Positions 1 to 60,312 of a DNA stretch of 64,000 bases are shown here, piece after piece. Source of the stretch: Apoda limacodes (Eukaryota; Arthropoda; Insecta; Lepidoptera; Limacodidae); NCBI GenBank assembly GCA_946406115.1, contig OX291557.1, positions 3,194,501 through 3,258,500 on the forward strand. The letters are read 5' to 3'. The position numbers and the translations under genes were made by a program. Position 1 is the first letter of the stretch. Each line of letters opens with the position of its first letter. The notes below the pieces were generated by a model. It worked only from the letters and a program-made list of their open reading frames with translations, had not been told where the DNA came from and ran no database searches.

Positions 1-109
1 ACGGTGTATTTAGTCAGCAATAGGGCTTGCACCATTCGATTGATTTTCCTATTCGAAAAATTTTAACGTTTAACTTAACGTTTTTAAATACTTGAGAATG
101 TGTTTTTTT

Positions 110-235
110 AGGGTTCCGTACCCAGAGGGTGCCAATGGAACTCTATTACCAAGCCTACGCTGTCTATCTATCTGTCCGACCTTTAAAAGGCTCTATCGTT
201 TAGACCGAAATAGGTAGAAGACTAAATTAATATAG
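110..235 (+). repeat. GGGTTCCGTAC-family repeat fragment, unit 1
   Basis: AGGGTTCCGTACCCAGAGGG followed by a TCTATCTATCTGTCCGACC stretch matches the start of a dispersed repeat common in moths and butterflies. A fuller member lies at 61790-62208. Copies in the other units begin at 23525 and 46468. Confidence 0.5.
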
Positions 236-286
236 CCATCTAGCTTATTATTAAGAGAAACTGAACACATTTGTTTGTTGGAAACG

Positions 287-450
287 ATAAGTCAAAGTCA
301 AAATGTTTTATTCAAATAAGGATTTTACAATCACTTTTGAATCTTCAAAGTTAAGAAATATTATTTTTTGACCTCCGGTTCACAATGTTGTTGATTTCTA
401 CCGAGAAGAATGCGGAAAGAAACTCGATAGTTACTCTTTTAAAAAAATCA
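287..450 (+). mobile_element. Non-LTR retrotransposon 3' tail-like fragment, unit 1
   Basis: A short GTCAAA repeat is followed by an ATGTTTTATTCAAATAAGG stretch, then ACCGAGAAGAATGCGG and AAACTCGATAGTTACTC. This resembles the 3' tails of lepidopteran non-LTR elements ('cGAGAAGaa-GGC-AGAAACTC-TACTCTTTT'). A related tail is at 16521-16674. Units 2 and 3 have one more GTCAAA copy. The family is named by recall of the pattern, not by a search. Confidence 0.4.
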
Positions 451-559
451 TAAAAACTAAAAATACAATCAATGTTTTAAATAAAAAATTTAAGCTGTAC
501 AATTTTATATTATTTCCATTTTAATTTGGTTTACCTATGCATCCTGTAATTGAGCATCT

Positions 560-625
560 TCAGTCCCAAAGTTAAGCAACGTTGGGATTGGTCAGTACTT
601 GGATGGGTTACTGCTTAGCGGCATA
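560..625 (+). repeat. 5S rRNA-derived fragment, unit 1
   Basis: AAGTTAAGCAACGTTGGG and GTCAGTACTTGGATGGG, then a degenerate GACCGCTT, correspond in order to the middle and 3' part of animal 5S rRNA. The 5' third is missing and the stem residues are degraded, so this is a 5S-derived repeat or pseudogene. Other copies are at 23981-24046 and 46924-46989; a different member is at 60824-60900. Confidence 0.6.
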
Positions 626-662
626 CTTTTTGTTTGTGACTTTGCGTGTTATAACATTGGTT

Positions 663-904
663 AAGTGCAAGTCGGACTAGCGCACCGTGGGTTCAGTAGT
701 AGTAAAAAAATGTGCAACTGTTTATAAAATCTTAATAACATAGTTGCTTTATCGTTCTTTAGCACATACTAGCTTCAATTTTGGCTTAGTCAGTACTTGG
801 ATGGGTGACCGCTTAGCGGCACACATTTTGTTTGTCCTTGTAAATTACGTAAATTGTAGTAGGTAATTGGAGGAACCCTCGGTGCGCGAGTCCAACTCAC
901 ACTT
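663..904. mobile_element. Short inverted-repeat element carrying a second 5S-like piece, unit 1
   Basis: The arm at 663-694 and the reverse complement of 873-904 agree at 27 of 32 positions. The right end reads CTCGGTGCGCGAGTCC, then CACACTTGGCCGG, a termination typical of a dispersed lepidopteran repeat. Inside, at 784-823, is a second 5S-like piece (GTCAGTACTTGGATGGGTGA, then CCGCTT). Counterparts are at 24084-24320 and 47027-47263. Confidence 0.5.
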
Positions 905-1165
905 GGCCGGTCTTTATACTACTAAGGTGGCAAACTAGCTTTACGGTCCGTCTGGTAGTAGGCGTTCACCGCAGGCTAATGGACGCTTGCAACAAACGGG
1001 GCATCACTTCGAAAATCTCATAACTTCTTTCTTGAAGAACCCCATACTGTAGTCCATAGACTTGGCAGGGAGTTCATTCTACAATCTAAGATTCCGCAGG
1101 TGTTGGGTTAGTGGTTTCAAGGCCATTGTTATTCTATGCAGGCTGAAGTCCGGGATATCTTCGGT
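905..1165 (+). repeat. Dispersed lepidopteran repeat (GGTCCGTCTGG...GGCAGGGAGTTCATTC), unit 1
   Basis: The motifs CGGTCCGTCTGGTAGTAGGC, TTCACCGCAGGCTAATGGAC, ATAACTTCTTTCTTGAAG and TTGGCAGGGAGTTCATTC recur in diverged form and the same order at 60545-60720. Two independent copies in one window show a mobile or dispersed family. No coding remnant was recognised. Unit 2 and 3 copies are at 24321-24580 and 47264-47525. Confidence 0.5.
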
Positions 1166-1544
1166 ATAGTGTCAAGTTAATTTTGCTCTGAGTTTTTTCG
1201 CCGTAATGTTGACAAGATCACGAGTTGAGGTGTTTAACTCTCCATGTGAACACTCAATCTCTCTTAATTTCTCAAGTTTGTACGAAACGATTTTGCCAGT
1301 TTTTGACTTTATTAACTAAAGTTGCCTAATAGACAGATCACCGAAAATTATTTTAAGCCTCTATTTCACTCTATTGCCTCTTTAATACGTAATATGTACA
1401 AAAAGCGTTTATTAATTAAGTTCAAGATGCGTAATTCAATAAATTAAATCTAATTAAATATTTGAATATTCATTTATTGGAATTTTAAATTGTAGCGAAT
1501 ATTCGAATAAAATGAATATTCGAATTGCAAGCCCTAGTTAGCAC

Positions 1545-2543
1545 ATAGAGGTTAAGAAACTGTGCTAACTTGCAAACGCTTATATTATGCTAATCAATAC
1601 TAGCACTTTGAAGTTGCTTTGCTTGCGTTTATTATTTAACAAAGAGACAAATTTGCAAGCATTTGTTCGACAGAATAACAATGCTTCAAATTACTTAATA
1701 TTTAAATAATATAAAAAGCATGACTTTTACATACAATAGGTAGGCACCTACAATTATGTACTATAGTATCTACCTACCTACCTATTAAGATTTCAGAAGT
1801 ATTTTTTAGGTTTACGCACACAAAGTTGTACTGTCTATCCGTCTGTGTCTCTGCCCCTAACGTTTAGACCAATGTACCAAAAGCAAGTGCATTATCTTGG
1901 CAAATTTTCTAAGAAATTTTAAAAGAACATGTTTGATGATGACATGATCTCCCTACCAGAAACATGTTTCTGTTACAAAATTATGCTAATATTCTTAATA
2001 GTCTATTCAATTCCAAACCTTCTGTGGGCGATTAGCAATCACACTCGACGACAATCTCAAATTATCTCGTATTAAAACGCAATAACTTTATATAGTTAGT
2101 TACATTGAAATCACATTTAGTGATGTGTAATCTTAATAATACTGCTTGATCTTGTTAAATAATAAGATGTTATAAGTTATTTATTTGCTGCCAAAATAAC
2201 AGTGAAATTGAGTTAAAAAAATTTAATAGTTCAATTCTATTTATGAAGATCAAAAAGACAGTATATTTAAGCATCAAAGCATTACAAAACTTTTCCAGTA
2301 AATTTCATTGGAGATTATATTTATATTTTTCATCCAAAAGACACTGTGTAGATAATAGCATTCGCGTAAATGCAAAGTGATGAACATACAAACTGTCAAC
2401 TCTTCTGTGGTGTAGGTGATGAGTTTCGACCTACCGAAATACTTGTTTTGTTACGAATAGAAAACCAGATTGGTCACTCTTATGTCGCTTTGTGCTTCAT
2501 GCAGACTTAACTTGAAATATATCTGTGAAACGAGTAACATCAA
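1545..2543. other. Upstream region of SDR copy 1; no gene seen
   Basis: AT-rich DNA with no recognisable coding sequence. It contains a TACC/CTAC microsatellite near 1765-1787 and a degraded hairpin near 1650-1693 that is perfect in units 2 and 3. Any SDR promoter must lie here, but no convincing TATA or initiator pair could be fixed. Confidence 0.5.
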
Positions 2544-3311
2544 ATGTCTTTTATAAATAAAGTAGTGCTCGTTACTGGCGCTGGGTCGGGTATTGGAGAA
2601 GCAACTGCGTTAAATTTCGCAAAACTATCTGCGACTTTGGCTTTAGTTGACATAAATACTGAAACCTTAGAGAGGTCTGCTGAAAATTGTAGAAAAATCA
2701 ACAACACGAAAGTTTTGACGGCACAAATCGATGTGGCTAAAGATAAAGAAGTTAAAAATATGATAGAAGACACAGTTAGAGAACTGGGAGGTATAGACGT
2801 GATTGTAAATTGTGCTGGTGTGGTATGCCTTGGGGGACTGTTAGATCCCGATGCAATAGAGAAATACGATAGAACCATGGCAATTAATTTTCGATCAGTA
2901 GTGACAATGACAAGTTTTGCAGCTCCAGCTTTGATTGAAAGAAAAGGATGCATCATCAACATATCTAGTAATGCAGCTATCGCAGTGCTTCCAAATTTCT
3001 TCGCGTACAGTGTGTCAAAGGCTTGTGTAGATCATTTTACGAGATGCGCTGCTCGAGAACTGGCTTCCAAAGGAGTAAGAGTAAACTCTGTTCTACCAGG
3101 TCCAACGAGAACTAACCTTATGATTAATGCAGGAGTAAGTCCAGACATAAACGATGCAATTTTTCATTCAATGGAGAACCAATTGCCTTTGAAGAGAATA
3201 GCAGAACCAGAAGATATAGCTGAGTTGTTGGTGTTCTTGGCTAGTGAAAAAGCTGCGAGTATGACTGGTGGCAGTTATTTAATAGATTCCGGTCAGGTAA
3301 CATTATGTTAA
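2544..3311 (+). CDS. Classical SDR oxidoreductase, copy 1, altered C-terminus
   Basis: A 255-codon intronless reading frame of the classical SDR family (NAD(P)-dependent oxidoreductase; substrate unknown). Visible motifs are the TGAGSGIG nucleotide loop (11-18), D36 after the second strand (favours NAD), NCAG (89-92), N115, S142, Y155, K159 (YSVSK) and PG at 185-186. The start is the ATG shared by all three copies. An 8-bp insertion (3294-3301) after codon 250 shifts the frame, so the last 12 residues of copy 3 are replaced by QVTLC; the original frame would have ended at 3340. Other changes from copy 3 include A94V, W95C, T152F (three residues before the catalytic Tyr) and A209S. The catalytic set is complete, but stability without the normal tail is doubtful. 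It may be a young pseudogene. Confidence 0.75.
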   Translation: MSFINKVVLVTGAGSGIGEATALNFAKLSATLALVDINTETLERSAENCRKINNTKVLTAQIDVAKDKEVKNMIEDTVRELGGIDVIVNCAGVVCLGGLLDPDAIEKYDRTMAINFRSVVTMTSFAAPALIERKGCIINISSNAAIAVLPNFFAYSVSKACVDHFTRCAARELASKGVRVNSVLPGPTRTNLMINAGVSPDINDAIFHSMENQLPLKRIAEPEDIAELLVFLASEKAASMTGGSYLIDSGQVTLC

Positions 3312-3515
3312 CTGATATTCGTGGTGGTCCAGAACTTTAAATGATATTGGGTTATGTTAGTAGTATTTAGAAACATAACGCTAAAAGAGAAAAGAACAGC
3401 TTTACGTTATTCAATAGCTGTATAATGGTATCAAAAGGCACTTCTTCAGTGCAGATAGAACTGTATTATAGGGACTGTGGCTGCCTACACTACTACTATA
3501 ACAGCCATAATACGG

Positions 3516-3521
3516 AATAAA
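3516..3521 (+). terminator. Putative poly(A) signal of SDR copy 1
   Basis: AATAAA about 175 bp past the original stop position. The counterpart is conserved in all units (26918-26923, 49862-49867). A second AATAAA-like site lies near 3644. Confidence 0.4.
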
Positions 3522-3680
3522 ACAGAGTTTTTAAGGGATGAAAGAGTTATAAAGTATATAAATTAAATTTATGTACATATAATCAACATCTAGGATTATG
3601 TTATATCATAAAAAAGTTTATGTAGACTAGAGACTAAAGAAAAAATAAATATTTCAAACATGAAAATTGCTCTAATTAAA

Positions 3681-4172
3681 AAAAAAACAACCAGATTCAA
3701 AAAGATGCACTAAACAGGTAAAAATAATTACTTATTGCCAAAAATCTGATCTGAATTAACGTCTGAAGTTGGTGTCTAATGTCTATGTACCTAACAGTTT
3801 ATAACACACTTCACTTGCATGACACCAACTTCAAACGGTAACTTGAAGCCGGTTGTTTTTTTTTTGTTAAAAATTTTGTTAAAGCTTTTGAGTAACGATT
3901 TGCTTTTTTCTCTCGTGCACTAAAAACATCCATATTTGTAACAAAATTTTATACAATCAACATAAGAGGCGCGTTTTACCAGTTCCAAATTAACATCACT
4001 TATTTTTTTTTTCAAAATTTAAAGTTTTAAATCCACTTTATTAATGCCACCTCAGGGGCATACTCTTTCGAATAAAAAAAGAATTTTTGGAATCGGTTCA
4101 CAATCAAAGGACACACATAAAAAAAATATTCCCGTCGAACCTCCTCCCTTTTTGAAGTCTTTTAAAAATACG
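3681..4172. mobile_element. MITE family 'AACAACC / AACCTCCT', copy downstream of SDR 1
   Basis: Starts AAAAAACAACCAGATTCAAAAAG and ends GAACCTCCTCCCTTTTTGAAG. A diverged relative in the same unit at 12483-12866 shares the order of motifs: CTTTTTTCTC then CACTAAAAA, GCCACC, a GAATAAAAAAAGAATTTT-like stretch, CATAAAAAAA and GAACCTCCT. A hairpin (GAAGTTGGTGTC pairing with GACACCAACTTC) lies near the left end; its loop is longer here than in units 2 and 3. No coding capacity. Confidence 0.5.
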
Positions 4173-4973
4173 GTTGATTTTGAGTTTTTCAACTTAATTC
4201 GTTAGAGTTAACGTCGTTATCATTCTAAGAGGGCGATTTAGGCCAGAAAGTTAATGAACTAAAAATCATTACACAATGTCATATACATTGCTATTAGATA
4301 TATTTGTTAAATACTTCTTTAGTAGATTATTTTATAATGACGCCTTAAAATTTATCTTTTTTTCTATGGGATTTAACGTTTTTACCGTTTTATAGTCACA
4401 TCTCTTTATTTTTTGCTACAACTTAGAGTCTATGCACTAGATAACAAGCTATTCTAATGATTTAATCAACATTCATTACAATAAAATGCAATACACGCTT
4501 AAAAATTTGCACAAGTGTTGAAACAATAGTCACTTCCAGATTTTTTATTGCATTAAATACAATAAATGAAAATCATTCAGTAAGGTAATGCACTAGAAAA
4601 AAGCCAGTTTTATAACATATATTTTTTTCAATCCTGTAGATGCTATAGTTTAGCCACAAAAATTTGCACAAAAACGGCGTATTTTCGCGGTCTAGACTAT
4701 ACCGCAGTCTTAAAAATACAAACTTTATTGAAATTGGAACTAAGATTTGCAACGAATTTGATTCCAGACTTGACTTCAAAGTTTTTGATTTTATAAAAAT
4801 TGACGCAGGTTACTTATTTGATTAGTTAGTATGTAATAACTTTAATAAAATACTATGTTAGTGGTAAAAAGTGCTTTTATTGTCTTACAGAAGTAAAAAG
4901 GAGATTATTTACCTCGGACATAAAGGTGTTGTCCAAGAATCTTTCATTGTAGCCCCTACGTCCTCCGGGTCGT
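4173..4973. other. AT-rich spacer, unit 1
   Basis: No gene or RNA recognised. A few small indels against unit 2 occur here; for example, unit 2 has about 35 extra bases after the position matching 4253, while units 1 and 3 lack them. Confidence 0.5.
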
Positions 4974-5130
4974 CCGGGTTGTGAGAGAGCGTGGTTGTGA
5001 ATTGATGCATTTCCGCCTCAATTCTGTCCATTTCGTGGCGCCACTGTCGCGTACACGTGGTTAAGTGAAACGAATGCTCCCGCTCACCGTCTACTTACCA
5101 GTGTGCACCATTTCTTTTCGTCATTGCGTC
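4974..5130. repeat. Left arm of 157-bp inverted repeat, unit 1
   Basis: Reverse complement of 9360-9517 with only a few mismatches; the arms are 4.2 kb apart. On the minus strand both arms carry GGTGCACACTGGTAAGTAGA or a close variant, which includes a splice-donor-like GTAAGT. The origin is probably a transposon or a duplicated exon; the family was not recognised. Confidence 0.7.
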
Positions 5131-5223
5131 GTTGGATTTTTTCGGCATCGGTACCGCCTCGCAAATTAAAATTGGTTACGGAATTAAAATATTGATATTA
5201 GTTTAGAATAAAGTGTTTTTTTT

Positions 5224-5587
5224 TTAAGTAACCGTGATTCTGTGACAATAGTTAAGCCTTTTGGCGTCGCTTTCGCAATAGACTATTCTCTGGAGATTCG
5301 CGGAGTCCCGTGTAATGTCGTGTTCAAAGACCGCGATGAAGCAAGTGCGAATCCCCCAAATGCGGGCTGGTGACGCTAGCGCCGCTCTTGTTCCAGCAGT
5401 ATCGCAACAGTTTAGCTCGCCAACCTTGTCAAGCTGGCACCAGGCCACAGCGGCTCACTCCAATTACTGCGCCGACACTCCCGTCGGACAAGCCAAGTGC
5501 TTGTCAAAAATAACACGTGGCAAACGAGGTTTGGTCGAATTGAGTGGTCAGGTTAGTACTTTCACAGATTTATCAGTCACTCTGTAG
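5224..5587. other. GC-richer unrecognised block, unit 1
   Basis: This stretch has clearly higher GC than its surroundings and stays open in one frame on each strand for 70-90 codons in all units. On the plus strand the frame starting at 5315 includes ALVPAVSQQFSSPTLSSW, and it ends near GTGGTCAG followed by GTTAGT, a donor-like site in unit 1 (GTTTAGT in units 2 and 3). It may be an old exon or part of a transposon. Units 2 and 3 lack 33 bp (5303-5335) between two CGCG repeats. No function is proposed. Confidence 0.3.
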
Positions 5588-6670
5588 CTTCAGTTACCGG
5601 TCTTCAAACGTTCTAAGGATTCCGAGGGCAATTAGTAATAGTTACTTTTGTGACTTCAGAACTGTTTCATAAGATAAAAAAAAAAAAAAGTGGATAAGCA
5701 GAATAATTTAAAATTTGCATTGGAGTATTTAAAAGCTTACGTTTCTATAACAGAAATGATCGATTTTTTTTTTTATATTAATGGAAATAAAATTTAGAAT
5801 CATATGGCCGCTCCAAATTTTAGGAAAGTAGACACAAATTATGATGATCATGATAACATTCTTGACATTTGGTGTAATTTTTTAATAATAAATGAAAGGT
5901 AATTTTTTAAAAATAATTAAGCTTTGCCACACATGTCCCATTGGCATCTTACAAGTTTATATTTCAAATGAGTCAATATTACAGCGAATCCTATTTAGAA
6001 AAACTGGATTTCGCAATGAAATAACTAACTACACTAACGAAAATTGTTTGAATTCTTATAAAATATGGGTTTTCTGTAATGACTTACAATCATATTAAAG
6101 TTGCAATGCCATAATCGATAAATACTTGTAAATTGGTTTCAATTATGCAAGAAAAATAAACTACCCTCAACCGAGTAGGTACTTACTTACGTACAAAATT
6201 GCATAATTATAATGAATTAACCTATAAGGTGCTAGGAACCCGTGTTAATCATTACAATCCCCGAGTGTTCTTTTTTTTCCTGAAAAGGGCAAACGTATGT
6301 AGTTACATTTAACATTCCGAAATATTTCTTTTGAAAAAGAAGATTAGAATTCAGGGCAAAATGTACAATTAACAGGATTAAAATGACAGGATCTACCTTT
6401 CAAGATATTTATAAATATAGTCTATTTATATTTCTTGGTAACAGATTAAAATAATATAGTCTAAGAAGATTAGGGTTTGACAGTGAATTTGTTTGCTATT
6501 TTTTTTGATAGTGTATCCGTTTACGAGACGTTGTTAATTTTATGGAATTCTAATATTAAACATGTAAAATAAGTCCTTAATGTAAGGTAGACAATCAAGG
6601 GGAATTTTTGAAATTTTCTGGAACGCAAGGAGTTGCAGATTTTAAACGGAATAGAATTTTATATGACGAG
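5588..6670. other. AT-rich spacer, unit 1
   Basis: No gene recognised. It contains poly-A and poly-T runs and a small palindrome near 6405-6440. The similar stretches in units 2 and 3 carry scattered substitutions that close the short reading frames. Confidence 0.5.
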
Positions 6671-7408
6671 TTTGATGGCCCGGGGCGTGCATTTTTCTAG
6701 GAGGGTAAAGTCCATCCTGGGGTTATTACCTGTAGAAAGTTATGTGATCCCTAGCCGCTCGTCCGTCCAAGACCCTAAGTCCCTGCTAGGAAGACTGAAT
6801 TTAACAGGTTTTGTATTCTGGCCGTGCATTCTTCTAGGAGGGTAAAGAGTCTCGTAGGAAGGCTCAATTTGACGAGTGATCAGAGCTTGCACTCTTCCAG
6901 GAGGGTAAAGTCCCTCCTAGGAACTCTGAATTTTACAGCATTTGTATTCTGGCCGTGCATTCTTCCAGGAGGGTAAAGTCCCTTCTGGAAAGGCTAAATT
7001 TGATGAGTGATCAGAGCTTGCACTCTTCCAGGAGGGTAAAGTCCCTCCTAGGGCGTCTGAATTTTACAGCATTTGTATTATGGCCGTGCATTCTTCCAGG
7101 AGGGTAAAGTCCCTTCTGGAAAGGCTCAATTTGACGAGTGATCAGAGCTTGCACTCTTCCAGGAGGGTAAAGTCCCTCCTAGGAAGTCTGAATTTTACAG
7201 CATTTGTATTCTGGCCGTGCATTCTTTCGGGAGGGTAAAGTCCCTTCTAGAAAGACTCAATTTGATGAGTGATCAGAGACTGAAATTTACAGTATTTGTA
7301 TTCTGGCCGTGCATTCTTCCAGTAGGGTAAACTTCTTCCTAGAAAGGCTCAATTTGACGAGTGATCAGAACCTGCACTCACCTAGGAGGGAGTCCCCTGT
7401 AGGGAGAC
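6671..7408. repeat. 131-bp tandem repeat of small hairpins, unit 1
   Basis: GCCGTGCATTCTT recurs at 6822, 6952, 7083, 7214 and 7306 (mostly 131-bp steps, the last one 92). Each 131-bp unit is itself two diverged halves of about 65 bp. Each half carries an inverted repeat of the form CCAGGAGGG-TAAAGT-CCCTCCTAGG, so the block is a row of potential stem-loops about 60-70 bp apart. The outer copies are the most degraded. No coding is evident. Confidence 0.85.
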
Positions 7409-9225
7409 CATATTTTGTGAATTGCTCGTACCAGTCAACATACAGTACATAAGTCAGTGCCGGAGAAGATGGCCGTATAGTGGAATAAGGGACAAAATTA
7501 TTGGCATTTGAATCAGAATCAACGAAATACAACTTTAAGATCCTTATACAATCAGAAAATCAGTGTAAGCTGACTTGAAAAACACTTGGAACCAAGCAAC
7601 CTGCTGTCATAAACACTTATTGACTTTTTGCTAGTCCTTGTGGCTTTAAATACCCTAAAGGAACGTCGAATACAGAGGAAATCCTCTACCAAAATGACAC
7701 ACATGAATGAGTTTTCACACGCTATTCGAGAAACTTTTCAGGAGATTGACCTATCTGCCTCCGAGCGAGATCACATGATCCTATGATGTGTGAAGACCAC
7801 CAATACCGACAGCCTTACCAGCTGCCCTAAGTCTTTCCTCTATCATCCTCGATACTTAAGGTACGTAGTTACCTTGGCGTATTTAATTAAGATTTTAAAG
7901 CCATATTGGGAGCAAACGTTCTGGCGAGCAAACCTACGCGCAAATGCCTTTTGTGACCCACTGCATAACCAGAATAATCAGTATTACTTAGTAAACATAA
8001 ACAATGTGTGGAAATCCCCCGTCGAATGTCGTGCACTCGAATCTGGAAGCATGCTGATTTGGGGACAGAGTTTCTTATGAAAAACTGGACGGAAGAAAAT
8101 GTCGCTTTAGTGACTTACAGTTGTCCATACTTATACTCATATGACCGTGCTTGAGGTAGATGGTAAATTTAGTACATCAATAATATTTTCCATCTTATGT
8201 TGTGTAATTTCTTTATTTTCATGCTCAAGAACGTTAAAAGGGAACGAGCAAGGCAGAAATATTGAAACGGTTCCACCTGGGCACAATATATTTTTGCATT
8301 GAATTGAATTGATTTTTCCTTTAGTGTTAACTTCTGGAAATATTTGTGTTTTTTTAATGCTTACATGGAAAGCACCTCCCACCGACAAGAATTAGCTAGA
8401 GATAATGAAAATGAGTATCGTGTTTTGGTAACGCATAAATTCCCTTGCATCTGATGATATGAAGTCAAATTTGGCATTATTTATTAACTAAACACGTTGT
8501 ATCGTTGGTGTGAAAAATGTAATGTAAAATACTACAGGATGCCGACATTAAAAGCCGACACAGCTAGATCAACGGTCTTTTTAAATTTGTTACATAAGTT
8601 CCAATTGGATATTTGGGACATCTAAATACTTTCTATTGCTTTTATTAATGTTAATTTGACCCTCTGTAGTTTCGCGTAGACTGTAAGCAACATACCGTTC
8701 AATCGCCTGCCAAACTCATAGAAGACATTTGAAAACGTATTCATGCACTGTAGCTCGTAGTCTACGCTCTGAGCTTACAGTCTAGCACTTTAGAAGACTA
8801 CTAGGCTACATATATAATCACTATTTATGTTTTATTTTGTTTTTGTGTGCAATGAAAAATGAAAAAATGAAAATTATTTGAATTCCTTATTTTTCATATT
8901 TTGGAATTTTCAAAAAAATATTAAAAAGGATTAAAATAGGTAATTCAAGAGAAATATAATAAAATAATTTAAAAAGATCAAGGTATTTAATGTAGTTTAG
9001 TTTCGTCTACGATTTTCAACCAGTTTGACTAAGATATATAATAAGTTTTTAATATGTTTTTGATTAAGGTATCTTATCAATAAATCCTAATTTTTTTTGT
9101 GTATAATGATGGATTACGTTCTTTTTGTTTGAATACAGTTGTTTTGCAAAGGTATTTAATCAACAGATCCTTATTCTTTTTGTTTGCATTAATAAAGCAC
9201 TTATTTATAAGCAGACCCGAACCAC
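7409..9225. other. Spacer with no recognised gene, unit 1
   Basis: Short reading frames occur (plus strand 7695-7787 with SHAIRETFQEIDLSASERD, and a following 96-codon frame to 8080), but they have no recognisable domain and shorten in the other units. A separated inverted repeat TAGACTGTAAGC (8677-8688) / GCTTACAGTCTA (8773-8784) is conserved in all three units. Confidence 0.4.
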
Positions 9226-9571
9226 TCACCAGGTGATAACAGACACGTCTCACAACCCGGAGAGGACGTAGGGGCCACAATAGAAAGATTTTACCTACCA
9301 TTAAAATCCTTATTGTGGTCCTGGAGTCCTCTCCGGGCCTATTGAGGCCTACCTGGTGAGACGCAATGACGAAAAGAAATGGTGCACACTGGTACGTAGA
9401 CGGTGAGCGGGAGCATTCGTTTGACTTAATCACGTGTACGCGACAGTGGCGCCACGAAATGGACAGAATTGAGGCGGAAATGCATCGAAATCACAACCAC
9501 GCTCTCTCACAACCCGGAGAGGACTCCAGGACCACAATAAGGATTTTAATGGTAGGTAAAATCTTTCTATT
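9226..9571. repeat. Nested inverted repeats including a perfect 59-bp pair, unit 1
   Basis: 9279-9337 and 9513-9571 are exact reverse complements (59 bp, spacer 175 bp). Inside and around them sit further inverted pieces: CTCACCAGGT / ACCTGGTGAG flanking 9226-9360, and CCCGGAGAGGAC / GTCCTCTCCGGG. The right arm of the 157-bp inverted repeat (9360-9517) overlaps the spacer. RNA from here could fold into long duplexes. Confidence 0.8.
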
Positions 9572-9806
9572 TTACCTGTGCCTCGATATTCAATACAGTG
9601 CCCAAGACATAAGACACTGCTTCTTGATCACCTTGGTGAATAAAATCTAATATTAATAAATATACCTAACCATAGAATGGGAAAAAGGAGTGCCAACAGT
9701 AGCAAGCTACGAGAGTATGGCTGGATATTATGAGTTTTATTTGTCGTTGTTTACTTTGTTTGGAAAGTTGTTGTTTCTGGGTCTGTCTAGAGATTTTAAT
9801 GGCAGG

Positions 9807-9860
9807 CAACCCTACGCAACCTACGCAACTCTACGCAACCCTACGCAACCCTACGCAAAC
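9807..9860. repeat. 10-bp VNTR (CCTACGCAAC), unit 1
   Basis: Five TACGCAA-containing repeats here, one in unit 2 (33163-33178) and seven in unit 3 (56083-56158). Variants CTCTACGCAA and CCCTACGCAA alternate. Confidence 0.85.
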
Positions 9861-12866: not shown

Positions 12867-12985
12867 ATTACTAGTCACTTAAATAGACGACAATATTTCC
12901 TAAACAACTCATGATAGCTCTGTAAAGTCAAAGGAACATTGAAGCGTATATATTTATTTATGTGTAAAAAACTCTTTTAAATATA

Positions 12986-15715: not shown

Positions 15716-15754
15716 ATTATTGTGCTATTACTCAAAATATAGTAAATATTCAGT

Positions 15755-46357: not shown

Positions 46358-46379
46358 TAACGGTGTATTTAGTCAGCAA

Positions 46380-47895: not shown

Positions 47896-47903
47896 GTTAG
47901 CAC

Positions 47904-49692: not shown

Positions 49693-49806
49693 ATGATATT
49701 GGGTTATGTTAGTAGTATTTAGAAACATAACGCTAAAAGAGAAAAAAACAGCTTTACGTTATTCAATAGCTGTATAATGGTATCAAAAGGCACTTCTTCA
49801 GTGCAG

Positions 49807-49845
49807 ATAGAACTGTATAGGGACTGTGGCTGCCTACAGTTCTAT
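49807..49845 (+). repeat. Hairpin in the 3' flank of SDR copy 3
   Basis: ATAGAACTGTA / TACAGTTCTAT, 11-bp perfect stem, 17-nt loop, as in unit 2. Confidence 0.6.
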
Positions 49846-49861
49846 AACAGCCATAATACGG

Positions 49862-49867
49862 AATAAA
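49862..49867 (+). terminator. Putative poly(A) signal of SDR copy 3
   Basis: AATAAA 170 bp after the stop codon. Confidence 0.4.
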
Positions 49868-50029
49868 TCAGGGTTTTTAAGGGATGAAAGAGTTATAAAG
49901 TATATAAATTAATTTTTTTATGTACATATAATCAACATCTAGGATTATGTTATATCATAAAAAAGTTTATGTAGACTAGAGACTAGAGAAAAAATAAATA
50001 TTTCAAACATGAAAATTGCTCTAATTAAA

Positions 50030-50494
50030 AAAAAAAACAACCGAATTCAAAAAGATGCACTAAACAGGTAAATATAATTACTTATTGCCAAAAATCTGAT
50101 CTGAATTACCGTTTGAAGTTGGTGTGAACACTTCACTTCCATGACACCAACTTCAAACAGTAATTTGAAGCCGGTTGTTTTTTTTTTTGTTAAAAATTTT
50201 GTTAAAGCTTTTGAGTAACGATTTGCTTTTTTCTCTCGTGCACTAAAAACATCCATATTTGTAACAAAATTTTATACAATCAACATAAGAGGCGCGTTTT
50301 ACCAGTTCCAAATTAACATCACTTATTTTTTTTTTCAAAATTTAAAGTTTTAAATCCACTTTATTAATGCCACCTCAGGGGCATACTCTTTCGAATAAAA
50401 AAAGAATTTTTGGAATCGGTTCACAATCAGAGGACACACATAAAAAAAAAACCCCGTCGAACCTCCTCCTTTTTTGAAGTCTTTTAAAAATACG
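50030..50494. mobile_element. MITE family copy downstream of SDR 3
   Basis: As in unit 2, with the compact hairpin (GTTTGAAGTTGGTGT / ACACCAACTTCAAAC). Confidence 0.5.
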
Positions 50495-51293
50495 GTTGAT
50501 TTTGAGTTTTTCAACTTAATTCGTTAGAGATAACGTCGTTATCATTCTAAGAGGGCGATTTAGGCCAGAAAGTTAATGAACTAAAAATCATTACACAATG
50601 TCATATACATTGCTATTAGATATATTTGTTAAATACTTCTTTAGTAGATTATTTTATAATGACGCCTTAAAATTTATCTTTTTTTCTATGGGATTTAACG
50701 TTTTTACCGTTTTATAGTCACATCTTTTATTTTTTGCTACAACTTAGAGTCTATGCACTAGATAACAAGCTATTCTAATGATTTAATCAACATTCATTAC
50801 AATAAAATGCAATACACGCTTAAAAATTTGCACAAGTGTTGAAACAATAGTCACTTCCAGATTTTTTATTGCATTAAATACAATAAATGAAAATCATTCA
50901 GTAAGGTAATGCACTAGAAAAAAGCCAGTTTTATAACATATATTTTTTTCAATCCTGTAGATGCTATAGTTTAGCCACAAAATTTGCACAAAAACGGCGT
51001 ATTTTCGCGGTCTAGACTATACCGCAGTCTTAAAAATACAAACTTTATTGAAATTGGAACTAAGATTTGCAACGAATTTGATTCCAGACTTGACTTCAAA
51101 GTTTTTGATTTTATAAAAATTGACGCAGGTTACTTATTTGATTAGTTAGTATGTAATAACTTTAATAAAATACTATGTTAGTGGTAAAAAGTGCTTTTAT
51201 TGTCTTACAGCAGTAAAAAGGAGATTATTTACCTCGGACATAAAGGTGTTGTCCTAGAATCCTTCATTGTAGCCCCTACGTCCTCCGGGTCGT
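50495..51293. other. AT-rich spacer, unit 3
   Basis: No gene. Around 50540-50590 it follows unit 1 (no 35-bp insert), although just upstream it follows unit 2. Confidence 0.5.
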
Positions 51294-51450
51294 CCGGGTT
51301 GTGAGAGAGCGTGGTTGTGAATTGATGCATTTCCGCCTCAATTCTGTCCATTTCGTGGCGCCACTGTCGCGTACACGTGGTTAAGTGAAACGAATGCTCC
51401 CGCTCACCGTCTACTTACCAGTGTGCACCATTTCTTTTCGTCATTGCGTC
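51294..51450. repeat. Left arm of 157-bp inverted repeat, unit 3
   Basis: Reverse complement, with few mismatches, of 55634-55791. Confidence 0.7.
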
Positions 51451-51543
51451 GTTGGATTTTTTCGGCATCGGTACCGCCTCGCAAATTAAAATTGGTTACG
51501 GAATTAAAATATTGATATTAGTTTAGAATAAAGTGTTTTTTTT

Positions 51544-51844
51544 TTAAGTAACCGTGATTCTGTGACAATAGTTAAGCCTTTTGGCGTCGCTTTCGCAATA
51601 GACTATTCTCTGGAGATCCGCGATGAAGCAAGTGCGAATCCCCCAAATGCGGGCTGGCGACGCTAGCGCCGCTCTTGTTCCAGCAGTATCGCAACAGTTT
51701 AGCTCGCCAACCTTGTCAAGCTGGCGCCAGGCCACAGCGGCTCACTCCAATTACTGCGCCGACACTCCCGTCGGACAAGCCAAGTGCTTGTCAAAAATAA
51801 CACGTGGCAAACGAGGTTTGGTCGAATTGAGTGGTCAGGTTTAG
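51544..51844. other. GC-richer unrecognised block, unit 3
   Basis: As in unit 2, without the 33-bp segment of unit 1. Confidence 0.3.
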
Positions 51845-52959
51845 TACTTTCACAGATTTATCAGTCACTCTGTAGCTTCAGTTACCGGTCTTCAAACGTT
51901 CTAAGGATTCCGAGGGCAATTAGTAATAGTTACTTTTGTGACTTTAGAACTGTTTCATAAGATAAAAAAAAAAAAAAAGTGGATAAGCAGAATAATTTAA
52001 AATTTGCATTGGAGTATTTAAAAGCTTACGTTTCTATAACAGAAATGATCGAAATTTTTTTTTATATTAATGTAAATAAAATTTAGAATCATATGGCCGC
52101 TCCAAATTTTAGGAAAGTAGACACAAATTATGATGATCATGATAACATTCTTGGCATTTGGTGTAATTTTTTAATAATAAATAATAAGTAATTTTTGAAA
52201 AATAATTAAGCTTTGCCATACATGTCCCATTGGCATCTTACAAGTATATATTTCAAATGAGTCAATATTACAGCGAATCCTATTTAGAAAAACTGGATTT
52301 CGCAATGAAATAACTAACTACACTAACGAAAATTGTTTGAATTCGTATAAAATATGGGTTTTCTGTAATGACTTACAATCATATTAAAGTTGCAATGCCA
52401 TAATCGACAAAAACTTGTAAATTGGTTTCAATTATGCAAGAAAAATAAACTACCCTCAACCGAGTAGGTACTTACTTACGTACAAAATTGCATAATTATA
52501 ATGAATTAACCTATAAGGTGCTAGGAACCCGTGTTAATCATTACAATCCCCGAGTGTTCTTTTTTTTCCTAAAAAGGGCAAACGTATGTAGTTACATTTA
52601 ACATTCCGAAATATTTCTTTTGAAAAAGAAGATTAGAATTCAGGGCAAAATGTACAATTAACAGTATTAAAATGACAGGATCTACCTTTCAAGATATTTA
52701 TAAATATAGTCTATTTATATTTCTTGGTAGCAGATTAAAATAATATAGTCTAAGAAGATTAGGGTTTGACAGTGAATTTGTTTGCTATTTTTTTTGATAG
52801 TGTATCCGTTTACGAGACGTTGTTAATTTTATGGAATTCTAATATTAAACATGTAAAATAAGTCCTTAATGTAAGGTAGACAATCAAGGGGAATTTTCGA
52901 AATTTTCTGGAACGCAAGGAGTTGCAGATTTTAAACGGAATAGAATTTTATATGACGAG
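51845..52959. other. AT-rich spacer, unit 3
   Basis: No gene recognised. Confidence 0.5.
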
Positions 52960-53696
52960 TTTGATGGCCCGGGGCGTGAATTTTTCTAGGAGGTTAAAGT
53001 CCCTCCTGGGGTTATTACCTGTAGAAAGTTATGTGATCTCTAGCCGCTCGTCCGTCCAAGACCCTAAGTCCCTGCTAGGGAGACTGAATTTAACAGGTTT
53101 TGTATTCTGGCCGTGCATTCTTCTAGGAGGGTAAAGAGTCTCCTAGGAAGGCTCAATTTGACGAGTGATCAGAGCTTGCACTCTTCCAGGAGGGTAAAGT
53201 CCCTCCTAGGAACTCTGAATTTTACAGCATTTGTATTCTGGCCGTGCATTCTTCCAGGAGGGTAAAGTCCCTTCTGGAAAGGCTAAATTTGATGAGTGAT
53301 CAGAGCTTGCACTCTTCCAGGAGGGTAAAGTCCCTCCTAGGAACTATGAATTTTACAGCATTTGTATTCTGGCCGTGCATTCTTCCAGGAGGGTAAAGTC
53401 CCTTCTGGAAAGGCTAAATTTGATGAGTGATCAGAGCTTGCACTCTTCCAGGAGGGTAAAGTCCCTCCTAGGACGTCTGAATTTTACAGCATTTGTATTC
53501 TGGCCGTGCATTCTTTCGGGAGGGTAAAGTCCCTTCTAGAAAGACTCAATTTGATGAGTGATCAGAGACTGAAATTTACAGTATTTGTATTCTGGCCGTG
53601 CATTCTTCCAGTAGGGTAAACTTCTTCCTAGAAAGGCTCAATTTGACGAGTGATCAGAACCTGCACTCACCCAGGAGGGAGTCCCCTGTAGGGAGA
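52960..53696. repeat. 131-bp tandem repeat of small hairpins, unit 3
   Basis: Same number and order of repeats as unit 2, with one change in the first hairpin (AGGAGGTTAAAG). Confidence 0.85.
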
Positions 53697-55498
53697 CCAT
53701 ATTTTGTGAATTGCTCGTACCAGTCAACATACAGTACATAAGTCAGTGCCGGAGAAGATGGCCGTATAGTGGAATAAGGGACAAAATTATTGGCATTTGA
53801 ATCAGAATCAACGAAATACAACTTTAAGATCCTTATACAATTAGAAAATCAGTGTAAGCTGACTTGAAAAACACTTGGAACCAAGCAACCTGCTGTCATA
53901 AACACTTATTGACTTTTTGCTAGTCCTTGTGGCTTTAAATACCCTAAAGGAACGTCGAATACAGAGGAAATCCTCTACTAAAATGACTCACATGAATGAG
54001 TTTTCACACGCTATTCGAGAAACTTTTCAGGAGATTGACCTATCTGCCTCCGAGCGAGATCACATGATCCTATGATGTGTGAAGACCACCAATACCGACA
54101 GCCTCACCAGCTGCCCTAAGTCTTTCCTCTATCATCCTCGATACTTAAGGTACGTAGTTACCTTGGCGTATTTAATTAAGATTTTAAAGCCATATTGGGA
54201 GCGAACGTTCTGGCGAGCAAACCTACGCGCAAATGCCTTTTGTGACCCACTGCATAACCAGAATAATCAGTATTACTTAGTAAACATAAACAATGTGTGG
54301 AAATCCCCCGTCGAATGTCGTGCACTCGAATCTGGAAGCATGCTGATGTAGGGACAGAGTTTCTTATGAAAAACTGGACGGAAGAAAATGTCGCTTTAGT
54401 GAGTTACAGTTGTCCATACTTATACTCATATGACCGTGCTTGAGGTAGATGGTAAATTTAGTACATCAATAAAATATTTCCTTCTTATGTTGTGTAATTT
54501 CTTTATTTTCATGCTCAAGAACGTTAAAAGGGAACGAGCGAGGCAGTATTATTGAAACGGTTCCACCTGGGCACAATATATTTTTGCATTGAATTGAATT
54601 GATTTTTCCTTTAGTGTTAACTTCTGGAAATATTTGTGTTTTTTTAATGCTTACATGGAAAGCACCTCCCACCGACAAGAATTAGCTAGAGATAATGAAA
54701 ATGAGTATCGTGTTTTGGTAACGCATAAATTCCCTTGCATCTGATGATATGAAGTCAAATTTGGCATTATTTATTAACTAAACACGTTGTATCGTTGGTG
54801 TGAAAAATGTAATGTAAAATACTACATACGACATTAAAAGCCGGCACAGCTAGATCAACGGTCTTTTTAAATTTGTTACATAAGTTCCAATTGGATATTT
54901 GGAACATCTAAATACTTTCTATTGCTTTTATTAATGTTAATTTGACCCTCTGTAGTTTCGCGTAGACTGTAAGCAACATACCGTTCAATCGCCTGCCAAA
55001 CTCATAGAAGACATTTGAAAACGTATTCATGCACTGTAGCTCGTAGTCTACGCTCTGAGCTTACAGTCTAGCACTTTAGAAGACTACTAGTCTACATATA
55101 TAATCACTATTTATGTTTTATTTTGTTTTTGTGTGCAATGAATGTCTTTATTTGAATTCCTTATTTTTCATATTTTGGAATTTTCAAAAAAATATTAAAA
55201 AGGATTAAAATAGGTAATTCAAGAGAAATATAATAAAATAATTTAAAAAGATCAAGGTATTTAATGTAGTTTAGTTTCGTCTACGATTTTCAACCAGTTT
55301 GACTAAGATATTTAATAAGTTTTTAATATGTTTTTGATTAAGGTATCTTATCAATAAATTCTAAATTTTTTTGTGTATAATGATGGATTACGTTCTTTTT
55401 GTTTGAATACATTTGTTTTGCAAAGGTATTTAATCAACAGATCCTTATTCTTTTTGTTTGCATGAATAAAGCACTTATTTATAAGCAGACCCGAACCA
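53697..55498. other. Spacer with no recognised gene, unit 3
   Basis: Counterpart of 7409-9225. The short frame at 54079 ends in TAG at 54349-54351. Includes the TAGACTGTAAGC inverted pair. Confidence 0.4.
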
Positions 55499-55845
55499 CT
55501 CACCAGGTGATAACAGACACGTCTCACAGCCCGGAGAGGACGTAGGGGCCACAATAGAAAGATTTTACCTACCATTAAAATCCTTATTGTGGTCCTGGAG
55601 TCCTCTCCGGGCCTATTGAGGCCTACCTGGTGAGACGCAATGACGAAAAGAAATGGTGCACACTGATACGTAGACGGTGAGCGGGAGCATTCGTTTGACT
55701 TAATCACGTGTACGCGACAGTGGCGCCACGAAATGGACAGAATTGAGGCGGAAATGCATCGAAATCACAACCACGCTCTCTCACAACCCGGAGAGGACTC
55801 CAGGACCACAATAAGGATTTTAATGGTAGGTAAAATCTTTCTATT
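55499..55845. repeat. Nested inverted repeats including a perfect 59-bp pair, unit 3
   Basis: Arms 55553-55611 and 55787-55845, perfect as in unit 1. The right arm of the 157-bp inverted repeat (55634-55791) lies between and overlaps. Confidence 0.8.
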
Positions 55846-56082
55846 TTACCTGTGCCTCGATATTCAATACAGTGCCCAAGACATAAGACACTGCTTCTTG
55901 ATCACCTTGGAGAATAAAATCTAATATTAATAAATATACCTAACCATAGAATGGGAAAAAGGAGTGCCAACAGTAGCAAGCTACGAGAGTATGGCTGGAT
56001 ATTATGAGTTTTATTTGTCGTTGTTTGCTTTGTTTGGAAAGTTGTTGTTCTTTCTGGGTCTGTCTAGAGATTTTAATGGCAG

Positions 56083-56158
56083 GCAACCCTACGCAACCCT
56101 ACGCAACCCTACGCAACTCTACGCAACTCTACGCAACCCTACGCAACCCTACGCAAAC
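56083..56158. repeat. 10-bp VNTR, seven copies, unit 3
   Basis: Three CCCTACGCAA, two CTCTACGCAA and two CCCTACGCAA units in a row. Confidence 0.85.
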
Positions 56159-58759
56159 CCCGCTCTAGGGTATCTAAGACACAATGTGTGTCGTGTATGC
56201 TGACGGTGTAATAAGGTCTGAGGCGGATACAACTAGCCCGCGGGCTCAGCCAGGCGGATCGGGACAAACAAACAAACGCACCAACAACACTGGAAGTCGA
56301 GGGCAATAACGTGTGCCGTATGAGGTCCCAGGGTTCTAACAACGTTTACCCGCAGACTGACTGTTGTTTGTTTAGTCTGGCCTGTTTACTATCAAACACA
56401 GTATCCATCCAATAAAGCCAACTCTAAGAGAGGTCAGTTATACATATAAATTGTGTGATCACAGCTTTTTATAGCTTATGTATAGCTAGAAAGCAGAGGA
56501 CGTTAGTACTATTACTTATTTAAATATAAGCTGTTGGTGCGTTATACACGTTTACTTAATCAGTACTTAATTAAATAGGTAAATTTAAATCTGTCAAAAA
56601 AAAACTTTGAAACAAAGAAATATAATAAAAATAACGCAATAATATGTTTAAAAGGGTTTTTTTTATCGAAACATTGATGCTTATTGAACTTGTATTTTTT
56701 TTATAAGAAAGTATAATAGTTTAATTGTTATGTTGTTAATCAAATGAAATTTCCAAAAAAGTAACTATTTTCTTACCGGATACTCCTCAGTAGAAATCTT
56801 CATTATGAAACAAGGCTCAAAAAAATAAGCATTTAAATTTTGACGATTCAAATTGTGAGTAAGCTGAACAATTAACTGAACTGGATTATTAACATACTGA
56901 TGATCAGCCCACCAGTAGTACTAGGTACCAGGAAACCAAACTGTGTTGAATGGAATAAAAGATGTAGTTTATATTATTTAACCATCATCATATCATGAAC
57001 AAAAATCATAGTTACCAAATAATATGCCCGAAGTAACAAAAAGCTAAAACAGCAGTGCCTTATAGGTAACCTTCGCTTGTCTGTCTGTCACAGGTATATT
57101 TTAGTTTAACACAGTTCTTAAATATATTATGTTAATACAAATTTGTTTGGAAAATATTTTGTGTTGGACCAGTAGGAATGTGAAATTAATTAAAAAGGAA
57201 GTTGTTTTCCCTGTCAACTACCAAATAACTTGTGAGGTCTTTTCTAAGAACTACAGTATAAGGTTCTACAAGAAGAGAGTAAGAGACTTTTAAGAGTCGA
57301 CAACACGCAAGTAATATAATGTTACAAGCGTTCGGAGGCTAGGATGCACTGCTTAACATCAGGCCATATACTTGTGTGCCACCTGTCTTAATAATATAGA
57401 AAAAAATATCCCTTGTTCCGTTGTAAAAGACAGTCGCGAATGACATATGTCTTATCAACTGTGTTCTACCTAAAACTTGGCAGGACAAAACTTGATCCCA
57501 AACATTGAAGCGTATTTTAACTTCAAGGTGCCGCTTTGCCTCCCTGACATAACTTGTGAGTGTCGATGGTGTCCTAGGGGTTTTGGTGTCTGCCTCGCGT
57601 TCTGAAGGGCGTTCTGAACTATTTTTGTTGATGTCTCAAGTACATAGAATATTCGCACCACTGACTTTTCAGTGAAGGAAAGACGTATCAGTCGCCTTTG
57701 CCCAAGGTTAATGGTAGGCCGCGTTAAGACTCTCGATTTATCAATAAAAAAATCGACATGTCATAAATTAGGTTCTAAGGCGTTAACTAGGGCAACTTCA
57801 GCATCACTGTAAATGACGAGTACATGACCCACTTTTGATTTGACGAAGATATTCTGGTCATGGCAGAATCCCTGGAGGACCTTGGCAAAATGCTCGACGC
57901 CACAGTGCTACACAACACTTGACACTACAGCTTCCCAACATATAGACCTCAAGACAAACATGGAAAACCCAAACAAAATGTAGAATTAACAGTTTATGTT
58001 GAAAACTCTTTTCTTCTTCACAATCACATTAAATTTCCCGAAGTGTCCCCCCCACATCGCATAAGCGCTAACCAGCTAACGATTCACATCAATAACGAAC
58101 AGGTGGTCGTCGAATATGGTGACCAATTTGTTGAACTGTCTACATCATGTGTTACGTGATGGATCGGCGCTAATGTTAAAGCCTTTGTCAATTAGTAGAA
58201 CTCAGATTACTATTTGGTTGGCTAATTGCAGTATAACCACAGATAAAAGTTGCTTGATCTTATTATTAATTAAGCCATATTCAGGGATATTAAGTTCCAA
58301 GGACGCCCCGCAAAGAACTTAATACTTTGACAAAACTAAAAAAAGTTTTATTACCTCTTACATTAAAAAAATAAGAGTTTCCAAATTCTATTTTACCAAA
58401 ATACGAGTAATTTGCATTCAGTCAAGAAATCCAATCATTTTGGACATATTATCACACACACACACACACATCACACAGAAGACAATAATATTTCCTAGTC
58501 AAAATTTTACTTTATCAATCGATTTTGATAAATTTCTTTTCCTTAGAAATATTTTTTTTGCCAAATAAATGTCACGTTTCAGAACAACACAACGTAAATC
58601 AGTTACCCTAAGACAGTTAATATTCTTGTATAGAATAAATAAATACATTTTATATGCAACATAATATTTTTCTTCTTTTGAAACAGAAAATAATTTTACA
58701 AAATATTACAATTTTTTGGCGTCAAAATCATGACTATGACGTCACTAATTAAAATAGAA
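56159..58759. other. Long AT-rich spacer, unit 3
   Basis: No gene. One copy of the CCCCACATCGCATAA duplication (two in units 1 and 2); (CA)9 at 58453-58470. Confidence 0.5.
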
Positions 58760-59060
58760 GAACCGACTTCTAAAAGCTGCAACTTAAAAGGTAAAAATAA
58801 TTAATTTCACCTTTTTAGTGGATCTTTTTAAACTCGGTTCTCGTTTTTGTCAAAAAGTTTTAATTTTTTACTTTTAAGTGACCTTGGCCGTTGGCTTTTT
58901 TTCTCGTACACTAAAAAAATACCTAAATCGCTTTAGGTGCCTTTAAAAATTTAAAGAGTTCCTTTGATTTCTCCAGGCTCCCATTATTATATACTGAACT
59001 GATGACCATGCCACCACCTGCGAAGTATATCCTTTCAAACGAAAAAAGAATTTTCCTAAT
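58760..59060. mobile_element. MITE family copy 2, right end deleted, unit 3
   Basis: Begins AACCGACTTCTAAAAGC. After GAATTTTCCTAAT the terminal part with GAACCTCCT is missing, a deletion of the right ~85-90 bp compared with units 1 and 2. Confidence 0.5.
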
Positions 59061-59183
59061 TTATATTACTAGTCACTTAAATAGAAGACAATATTTCCTA
59101 AACAACTCATGATAGCTCTGTAAAGTCAAAGGAACATTGAAGCGTATATATTTATTTATGTGTAAAAAACTGTTTTAAATATA

Positions 59184-59784
59184 CAGTGTAAACTCCTTAT
59201 AAAGTCATTCTTTATAACGATAAACTCTCTTTAACGTAGAAAAGAGCACAATTTGGTTGGTTTACCTTAAAACCCACACATTGATGCACTCTTTATAGCG
59301 CAGCAGCCATTCTCTATAACGAAGAAATGTGTTCATATTTCGACACAAAAAATATTTATTATCGGTATTATTGTTTATGTTATCTTATCAAGTTACAAAA
59401 CACAGACTAAACCTTTGAGGCCCCAAAACTTCTGAGCTCGTAAACAGCTGCCTTCCTTTTGTCATTGTCAATTACCTTGAACACGTACATCATTATGCTT
59501 GGTTTCCTTGAAAATGATGGTCTCGAACTAAACACATCAATCTTTGAAAATGTTAACATGGCCAGTAAAAGAAAAGCGTTATGCATTGACGGAAAAGTTT
59601 GTGTGATACGTGCGATTGTAAAGGGAGAAAAGAAAAGTAACGTTGGAAGACGTTTTAAACTAAGTCAATCTACTGTTGTTTTTCTGGTTTGGTTGTTTTT
59701 CTTTCTTCACTCAATATAACGATAACTCTCTATAACGATAAAAATGCTCGGTCCCTTGAGTTTTGTTATAAAGAGTTTACGCTG
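59184..59784 (+). mobile_element. Tigger/pogo-like DNA element, unit 3
   Basis: Left end CAGTGTAAACTCC after TA. The right end GAGTTTACGCTG is followed by TT, so the right TA is mutated. About 28 bp longer than the unit 1 and 2 copies because more of the transposase start remains. Confidence 0.8.
59558..59719 (+). pseudogene. Tigger/pogo transposase N-terminal fragment, in frame, unit 3
   Basis: MASKRKALCIDGKVCVIRAI, then VKGEKKSNVGRRFKLSQSTV, extends the helix-turn-helix in one frame. The one-base insertion of units 1 and 2 is absent, and additional bases (TCAATCTACTGTTG...) are kept. So unit 3 holds the more ancestral version. It ends at 59719 without a DDE domain. Confidence 0.75.
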
Positions 59785-59958
59785 TTCCTTTTTTTTGTTA
59801 CATGAAGCTTTCTTTACTAGTTTATGAAGTATTATATTTTGTGTAAATGATTAGTTATTTCTGCTCGTAAACGAACTAAAATATTGTCGAAAAAAATAAA
59901 CCGCATCAACAAAAATTGGGCGAGTCGAACTAATATGTCGCTTAATTAATAACGGATC

Positions 59959-60128
59959 CATGGGGACGACGTCACGGAGTATTCGTTGTATACTCAAACC
60001 TTCTCCAGAATGTAACAAATACTTTTCCGAAAACCGCATTAAAATCGGTTCAGCCAAACGCGAGATAATCGCGGGCAAACGTCAAACATACGGGTCAAAC
60101 TGAGAACCTCCTTTTTTTGAAATCGGTT
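59959..60128. mobile_element. MITE right-end fragment, unit 3
   Basis: As 13731-13903 with small differences (AATCGCGGGCAAACG). Confidence 0.5.
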
Positions 60129-60312
60129 AAAAATATCTTAAAACAGTGACATCACTAATCAAAAACTATTAAGTATATTTTTGTTTAAAATAATTTTATC
60201 TTAAATCAAAGCCAATAAAATGTTCCGTTAAGATAATAATGCTTTGAATAAAATAAAATAATGATATTAACAGAATTTACTGGATTTTTTACTCAAAATC
60301 TAATATTTTAAG

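What the first reader, a model, noticed from the sequence alone, without database searches (positions are those of the whole stretch)
1..60312. Direct tandem amplification of a ~22.8-kb segment carrying an SDR gene
Two full units and a truncated third, all in the same orientation, share about 25 ordered landmarks. High identity means a recent expansion. An array of this size around a possible detoxification or hormone-type SDR could be an adaptive copy-number change, a W- or B-chromosome ampliconic repeat, or an assembly artefact.
Basis: seen in the sequence. Interest (0 to 1): 0.8.

Follow-up and report, generated by a model that had tools for sequence, protein, structure and literature searches.

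The report
Six-copy tandem SDR gene array
A 23-kilobase stretch of what is most likely a butterfly or moth chromosome, carrying one enzyme gene, has been copied head to tail six times and partly blended by recombination; two of the six gene copies have stop codons, so this looks like an ordinary ageing duplication rather than a new adaptation.

Summary
The tandem repeat is really in the sequence and is larger than reported. The window lies at C20:3194501-3258500 of an 800-Mb, 31-contig genome (lepidopteran, by its protein matches). The array spans C20:3093975-3254812, about 161 kb, with six same-direction units; three reach into the window. Both array ends show that the natural unit starts at window 14087 and ends at 14086/37473/60312. 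The "truncated third unit" is thus a complete unit read in the wrong phase, and 23416 and 46158-46360 are not unit junctions. Pairs of units differ by 0.24-2.48% substitutions, arranged in blocks: outer ends of the terminal units are the most diverged and inner parts are homogenised. That fits repeated unequal exchange, not one recent burst. Each unit carries one SDR gene readable in a single frame. Four are open; two have stops, one replacing the catalytic tyrosine (window 26422-26424). Coding sequence changes about as fast as its flanks, and dN/dS is 0.30-1.52 on few changes, so selection for extra copies is not supported, nor excluded. C20 carries ordinary genes and Tpi lies on another contig, so W or B origin is unlikely. 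Read depth could not be tested. New member of a known kind.

The parts
1..14086 (+). Unit 4 of 6, right-hand part; the rest lies left of the window, from about C20:3187576
14087..37473 (+). Unit 5 of 6, complete (23387 bp); mosaic of unit-3/6-like, unit-2-like and unit-4-like blocks
37474..60312 (+). Unit 6 of 6, complete (22839 bp), last unit before the right flank; its right end differs 2.0-2.1% from units 1, 2, 4 and 5 (unit 3 lacks that part)
14086..14087 (.). Ancestral duplication junction (unit end | unit start)
   Evidence: same junction at 4 of 5 internal borders: C20:3123754/5, 3172523/4, 3208586/7, 3231973/4; the unit 3/4 border is deleted
37473..37474 (.). Ancestral duplication junction, second one in the window
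60312..60313 (.). Right end of the array; non-unit flank begins at 60313
   Evidence: within the window the flank shares only short matches (60-62 bp) with the unit, and one 83% match of about 310 bp lies further right
2544..3311 (+). SDR gene copy of unit 4, open frame of 255 aa; an 8-bp insertion changes the C-terminus
   Evidence: PF13561 4e-58, PF00106 1e-49
25960..26748 (+). SDR gene copy of unit 5, in-frame TAG at codon 155 (26422-26424), the catalytic tyrosine position
48904..49692 (+). SDR gene copy of unit 6, open frame of 262 aa
   Evidence: PF13561 1.5e-58
19090..21019 (-). Decayed hAT transposase remnant of unit 5
   Evidence: PF05699 1.2e-9 (19090-19596) and PF14291 1.1e-11 (20159-20602); the third piece tested, 20708-21019, had no Pfam match
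22304..22921 (+). 618 bp found only in unit 5: a 279-bp duplication plus a 340-bp copy of hAT sequence (22582-22921)
   Evidence: the 340 bp are 100% identical to unit 6's hAT and 99.1% to unit 5's own
46158..46359 (+). 202-bp piece in units 6 and 3, absent from the matching place of unit 5 (23416/23417); part of it is a dispersed repeat
6777..7404 (+). 131-bp minisatellite inside the unit (also at 30150-30777 and 53066-53693)

Best explanation
This is a segmental tandem duplication, most likely on an autosome. Shown: six direct units of one roughly 23-kb segment in one place of the assembly, with the same junction at four of the five internal borders and block-wise mosaic identity. Inferred: the first duplication joined two points that share almost no sequence (one G), so it arose by end-joining or a replication-based copying error; later units arose and were partly homogenised by unequal crossing-over and gene conversion, with one deletion fusing units 3 and 4 and one inter-unit template switch in unit 5. 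Inferred: the SDR gene came along as a passenger and its copies drift under weak or no constraint. If made, the intact proteins would be NAD(P)-dependent oxidoreductases of the classical SDR type; the substrate is unknown.
For: Six units and both array ends. Left flank ends CCTG and units end TAAG: one shared base. Mosaic: 368 informative sites among units 4, 5 and 6 fall in 87 runs; shuffled mean 223.9, minimum 191, none of 10,000 shuffles as low. Unit 1's left 9 kb differ 2.7-3.3% from the five other units, its right end 0.7-0.8% from units 2, 4 and 5; unit 6's left 9 kb differ 0.2-0.3% from units 5 and 3, its right end 2.0-2.1% from units 1, 2, 4 and 5. Unit 5's odd block at unit position 18-20 kb matches unit 2 at 0.1-0.4%. 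Shared insertions sort the units: about 2 kb at unit position 2625 in units 1 and 2 (and partly before unit 4), 573 bp in units 2 and 4 (98.4% alike), 202 bp in units 3 and 6. Two of six SDR copies have stops; coding and flanking divergence are alike.
Against: Four of six SDR frames are open, and the nine defined pairs among units 2-6 give dN/dS 0.30-0.90, so weak purifying selection is possible. Unit 1 is more rearranged than a plain copy: parts of the unit are missing and one 366-bp piece is inverted. No reads, no second individual and no outgroup assembly were available, so copy number in the animal and the order of events are inferred.
Confidence: 0.85

Rival explanations
1. Assembly artefact: unmerged haplotypes, or a repeat graph walked wrongly, laid end to end.
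For: Block-wise near-identity, for example 0 substitutions between units 4 and 5 in five consecutive 500-column windows near the unit's right end, could also come from a wrongly walked graph. Read depth was not available.
Against: Unit-specific differences elsewhere: a 20.8-kb insertion in unit 2 that units 3-6 lack, a deletion fusing units 3 and 4, a 618-bp insert in unit 5 only; the same junction at four internal borders; no N in 208 kb. Six diverged copies in one line are more than two haplotypes can give.
Confidence: 0.07
2. Adaptive amplification: a higher dose of the SDR enzyme was selected, for detoxification or hormone metabolism.
For: Four open frames; dN/dS 0.30-0.90 among units 2-6; a separate tandem array of relatives on C11, four units of 4.8 kb at 99.8% identity, shows that the family amplifies repeatedly.
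Against: Two of six copies have stops, coding sequence is no slower than its flanks, dN/dS is 1.06-1.52 for unit 1 against the rest, and units 2 and 4 share an altered C-terminus. No expression or population evidence was available.
Confidence: 0.08
3. Ampliconic repeat of a W or B chromosome.
For: Large direct repeats are typical of such chromosomes (recalled).
Against: C20 is a 28.8-Mb contig with 5 of 108 Ras-family matches, at about three loci; Tpi marks C28, not C20, as the Z (linkage recalled). Coverage by sex was not testable.
Confidence: 0.02
4. Transposon-driven amplification, with hAT or another element as the moving agent.
For: The unit contains a hAT remnant and a weak CENP-B-like piece.
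Against: The hAT remnant is internal and broken; the large Foldback-like element sits in unit 2 and not in units 3-6; I recognised no element end at the breakpoints, but no repeat library was at hand.
Confidence: 0.03

Closest known systems
Tandem segmental duplications homogenised by unequal crossing-over and gene conversion (concerted evolution)
   Same: Direct units, shared junctions, mosaic blocks, terminal units most diverged at their outer ends
   Different: Only six large units, homogenisation incomplete, one recognised gene per unit
Classical SDR enzymes (PF13561/PF00106), FabG-like or butanediol-dehydrogenase-like
   Same: Pfam matches over cut-off; TGAGSGIG and YSVSK (residues 155-159) in the unit 6 copy, the tyrosine and lysine aligned with those of solved 2,3-butanediol dehydrogenase 6xex
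   Different: At most 54% identical to any of the 120 homologs listed of 5712 found; below the curated cut-off of each of the 25 NCBIfam families listed of 233, so the substrate is open
SDR genes readable in one frame, elsewhere in the same genome
   Same: The 49 best matches each span at least 247 of 262 residues in one frame: 6 on C20 and 43 elsewhere, 37 of those 43 without stops, many clustered on C18, C26, C13, C3 and C11 (lower bounds)
   Different: The C20 copies form their own 100/100 branch in a 60-protein tree that includes five paralogs, among them the nearest one (52%, on C18); deeper forks are open

Membership tests
Tandem segmental duplication array | Two or more direct adjacent copies of one segment | tested here: met
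   six units
Tandem segmental duplication array | Same junction between successive copies | tested here: met
   4 of 5 internal borders alike; the unit 3/4 border is deleted
Tandem segmental duplication array | Copy number above one in reads | not testable with these tools
   no read data
Concerted evolution by unequal exchange | Block-wise mosaic, and end units more diverged outside than inside | tested here: met
Classical SDR enzyme | Pfam match over curated cut-off | tested here: met
   PF13561 197.2 and 198.6 bits against 27, units 4 and 6
Classical SDR enzyme | Catalytic YxxxK and glycine-rich cofactor motif (motifs recalled) | tested here: met
   in units 1, 3, 4 and 6 (unit 1 reads YNVSK); unit 2 has a stop upstream of it, unit 5 a stop at the tyrosine
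Classical SDR enzyme | Enzyme activity | not testable with these tools
   no assay
Adaptive gene amplification | Copies kept intact by selection | tested here: inconclusive
   4 of 6 open, 2 with stops; coding change no slower than flanks; dN/dS 0.30-1.52 on 2-18 changes
W-chromosome ampliconic repeat | Location on the W, few ordinary genes | tested here: not met
   ordinary Ras-family matches on C20; coverage by sex not testable

The most novel reading that the evidence does not exclude
The array is a live copy-number polymorphism in which a lineage-specific SDR enzyme, with altered C-termini and changes near the active site among its copies, is being diversified and dosage-tuned in this species.
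Probability: 0.08. Interest if true: 0.5.

Novelty: new member of a known kind. Interest (0 to 1): 0.22.

Why it matters
It is a clear worked case of how a large tandem duplication ages: end units keep old differences, inner parts are rewritten by exchange, and a passenger gene breaks in some copies. If copy number varies between individuals, it would be a good place to measure unequal exchange in Lepidoptera. It also shows that reading a tandem array without its ends gives a wrong unit phase and a false truncated copy.

Tried and rejected
Rfam and tRNA searches of the window found nothing. Pfam on ten window frames found only SDR, hAT pieces and a CENP-B-like piece below cut-off; the other short frames listed were not searched, so short exons of a second gene in the unit could be missed. 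I considered that the window began at a contig end, because position 1 corresponds to the place of the 202-bp piece; the genome shows this is chance. A single unequal crossover as the origin of unit 5 was rejected as insufficient, because unit 5 has a block shared with unit 2. A first tree (58 proteins) lacked two paralogs, the nearest one included, because my script looked at one strand only; it was redone with both. A search for other copies of window 10600-12100 did not complete, so the only genome-wide DNA probe is window 1000-2500: six full-length hits, all in this array, and otherwise short repeat-like hits. Papers: six searches on SDR genes, tandem arrays or duplications (one search gave none) and one on foldback elements; I saw listings and starts of abstracts only, opened no paper, and nothing in those listings describes this array.

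Full report
Where it is. The window is C20:3194501-3258500 of an 800.3-Mb genome in 31 contigs. Every named protein among the first 50 homologs listed for the SDR is lepidopteran; the best identity listed is 54% (120 of 5712 hits listed, and only the 7998 candidates sharing most words were scored). So the organism is a butterfly or moth (inference). The four Tpi-family matches lie on C28; Tpi is Z-linked in Lepidoptera (recalled), so C20 is not the Z. Five of 108 Ras-family matches, at about three loci, are on C20, so it carries ordinary genes.

The observation. The direct repeat is confirmed. The neighbourhood shows the whole array, C20:3093975-3254812: unit 1 3093975-3123754, unit 2 3123755-3172523, unit 3 from 3172524 to about 3185731, unit 4 from about 3187576 to 3208586, unit 5 3208587-3231973, unit 6 3231974-3254812. 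The left flank meets the array at the same unit position where the right flank leaves it, so the natural units are window 14087-37473 and 37474-60312. Unit 1 is the most rearranged: several stretches are missing and one 366-bp piece is inverted.

Divergence. Over six units, laid on unit 5, pairs run from 0.24% (units 3-5) to 2.48% (units 1-3). The pattern is a mosaic: 368 informative sites among units 4, 5 and 6 give 87 runs against a shuffled mean of 223.9, and none of 10,000 shuffles was as low. Unit 5 is nearest to units 3 and 6 over most of its left 18 kb, to unit 2 at about 18-20 kb, and to unit 4 at its right end. Unit 1's left end and unit 6's right end, the outer edges, stand apart from the other units. 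Unequal crossing-over and conversion explain this; a single recent burst does not. With a recalled Heliconius rate of 2.9e-9 per site and generation, 3% and 0.2% would mean roughly five million and 0.35 million generations; this is rough.

Junction and events. The left flank ends in CCTG and units end in TAAG, both followed by TGCTGCTG; after unit 6 the right flank continues CTGAAACTG. One shared base suggests end-joining or a replication error for the first duplication (inference). Insertions sort the units. About 2 kb at unit position 2625 is in units 1 and 2, and its right-hand part precedes unit 4; units 3, 5 and 6 align without it. A 573-bp piece near unit position 4690 is shared by units 2 and 4 (98.4%), and a 202-bp piece by units 3 and 6 (100%) but not unit 5. 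Unit 5 carries 618 extra bases: a 279-bp duplication and a 340-bp hAT piece identical to unit 6's copy and 99.1% to its own, which reads as an inter-unit template switch.

The gene. Six SDR copies are present. Units 1, 3, 4 and 6 are open; unit 2 has TGA at codon 117 and unit 5 TAG at codon 155, the tyrosine of YSVSK, which aligns with the YxxxK tyrosine of a solved butanediol dehydrogenase. Units 2 and 4 share an 8-bp insertion that changes the C-terminus. dN/dS over 250 codons is 1.06-1.52 for unit 1 against the others and 0.30-0.90 among the others, undefined for units 3-6, on 2-18 changes a pair. Coding divergence exceeds that of the 1.6 kb upstream in 7 of 15 pairs and of the 1.6 kb downstream in 7 of 15. 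So the copies look nearly unconstrained; weak purifying selection is not excluded.

The family. The 49 best matches in the genome each span at least 247 of 262 residues in one frame: 6 on C20 and 43 elsewhere, 37 of those 43 without stops (lower bounds). Many cluster, and on C11 four units of about 4.8 kb are 99.8% identical and carry relatives, three open and one broken. One-frame genes are therefore common in this family, and this copy needs no special retroposition. In a 60-protein tree the four open C20 copies form one branch (100/100) apart from five paralogs and 51 listed homologs, with deeper forks open.

Verdict. Artefact is unlikely but untested by reads; adaptive value is not shown; W or B origin is unlikely.

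Noticed in passing
C20:3131371-3152179 (L015-L017), left of the window: A 20.8-kb insertion in unit 2 whose inverted ends are built of about 847-bp tandem repeats (16 full copies and a part one way, 5 the other; 95-98% identical to the first), with termini ACCGGTGTAAAG and CTTCACACCGGT and an apparent AATAATTAT target duplication; Foldback-like by anatomy (Foldback features recalled). An endonuclease-like frame (PF03372, 3e-6) lies in the inner part.
   Followed up: partly
C11:26407693-26426968 (L036-L038): A second tandem array, four units of about 4.8 kb at 99.8% identity, carrying relatives of the same SDR family, three open and one broken.
   Followed up: partly
window 46158-46359; C20:3181235-3181436, 3087448-3087621, 3088178-3088351, 3104902-3105075: A 174-bp stretch of the 202-bp piece is 100% identical at five places of the fetched region, three of them on the other strand: a small, apparently young dispersed repeat.
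   Followed up: partly
window 9279-9571 and 4973-5130: Inverted-repeat (MITE-like) element with 59-bp inverted ends, and a 159-bp piece repeated in inverted orientation 4.4 kb away, in each of the window's three units.
   Followed up: no
window 9806-9858 and 56083-56156: 10-bp repeat GCAACCCTAC, 5.4 copies in unit 4 and 7.4 in unit 6, not listed in unit 5.
   Followed up: no
window 59444-59716: Frame with a CENP-B_N match below cut-off (18.9 bits against 21.2), possibly a pogo-type transposon remnant.
   Followed up: no
C20:3096764-3097537 (L011): Reverse transcriptase frame (PF00078, 5e-16) in an insertion of unit 1.
   Followed up: no
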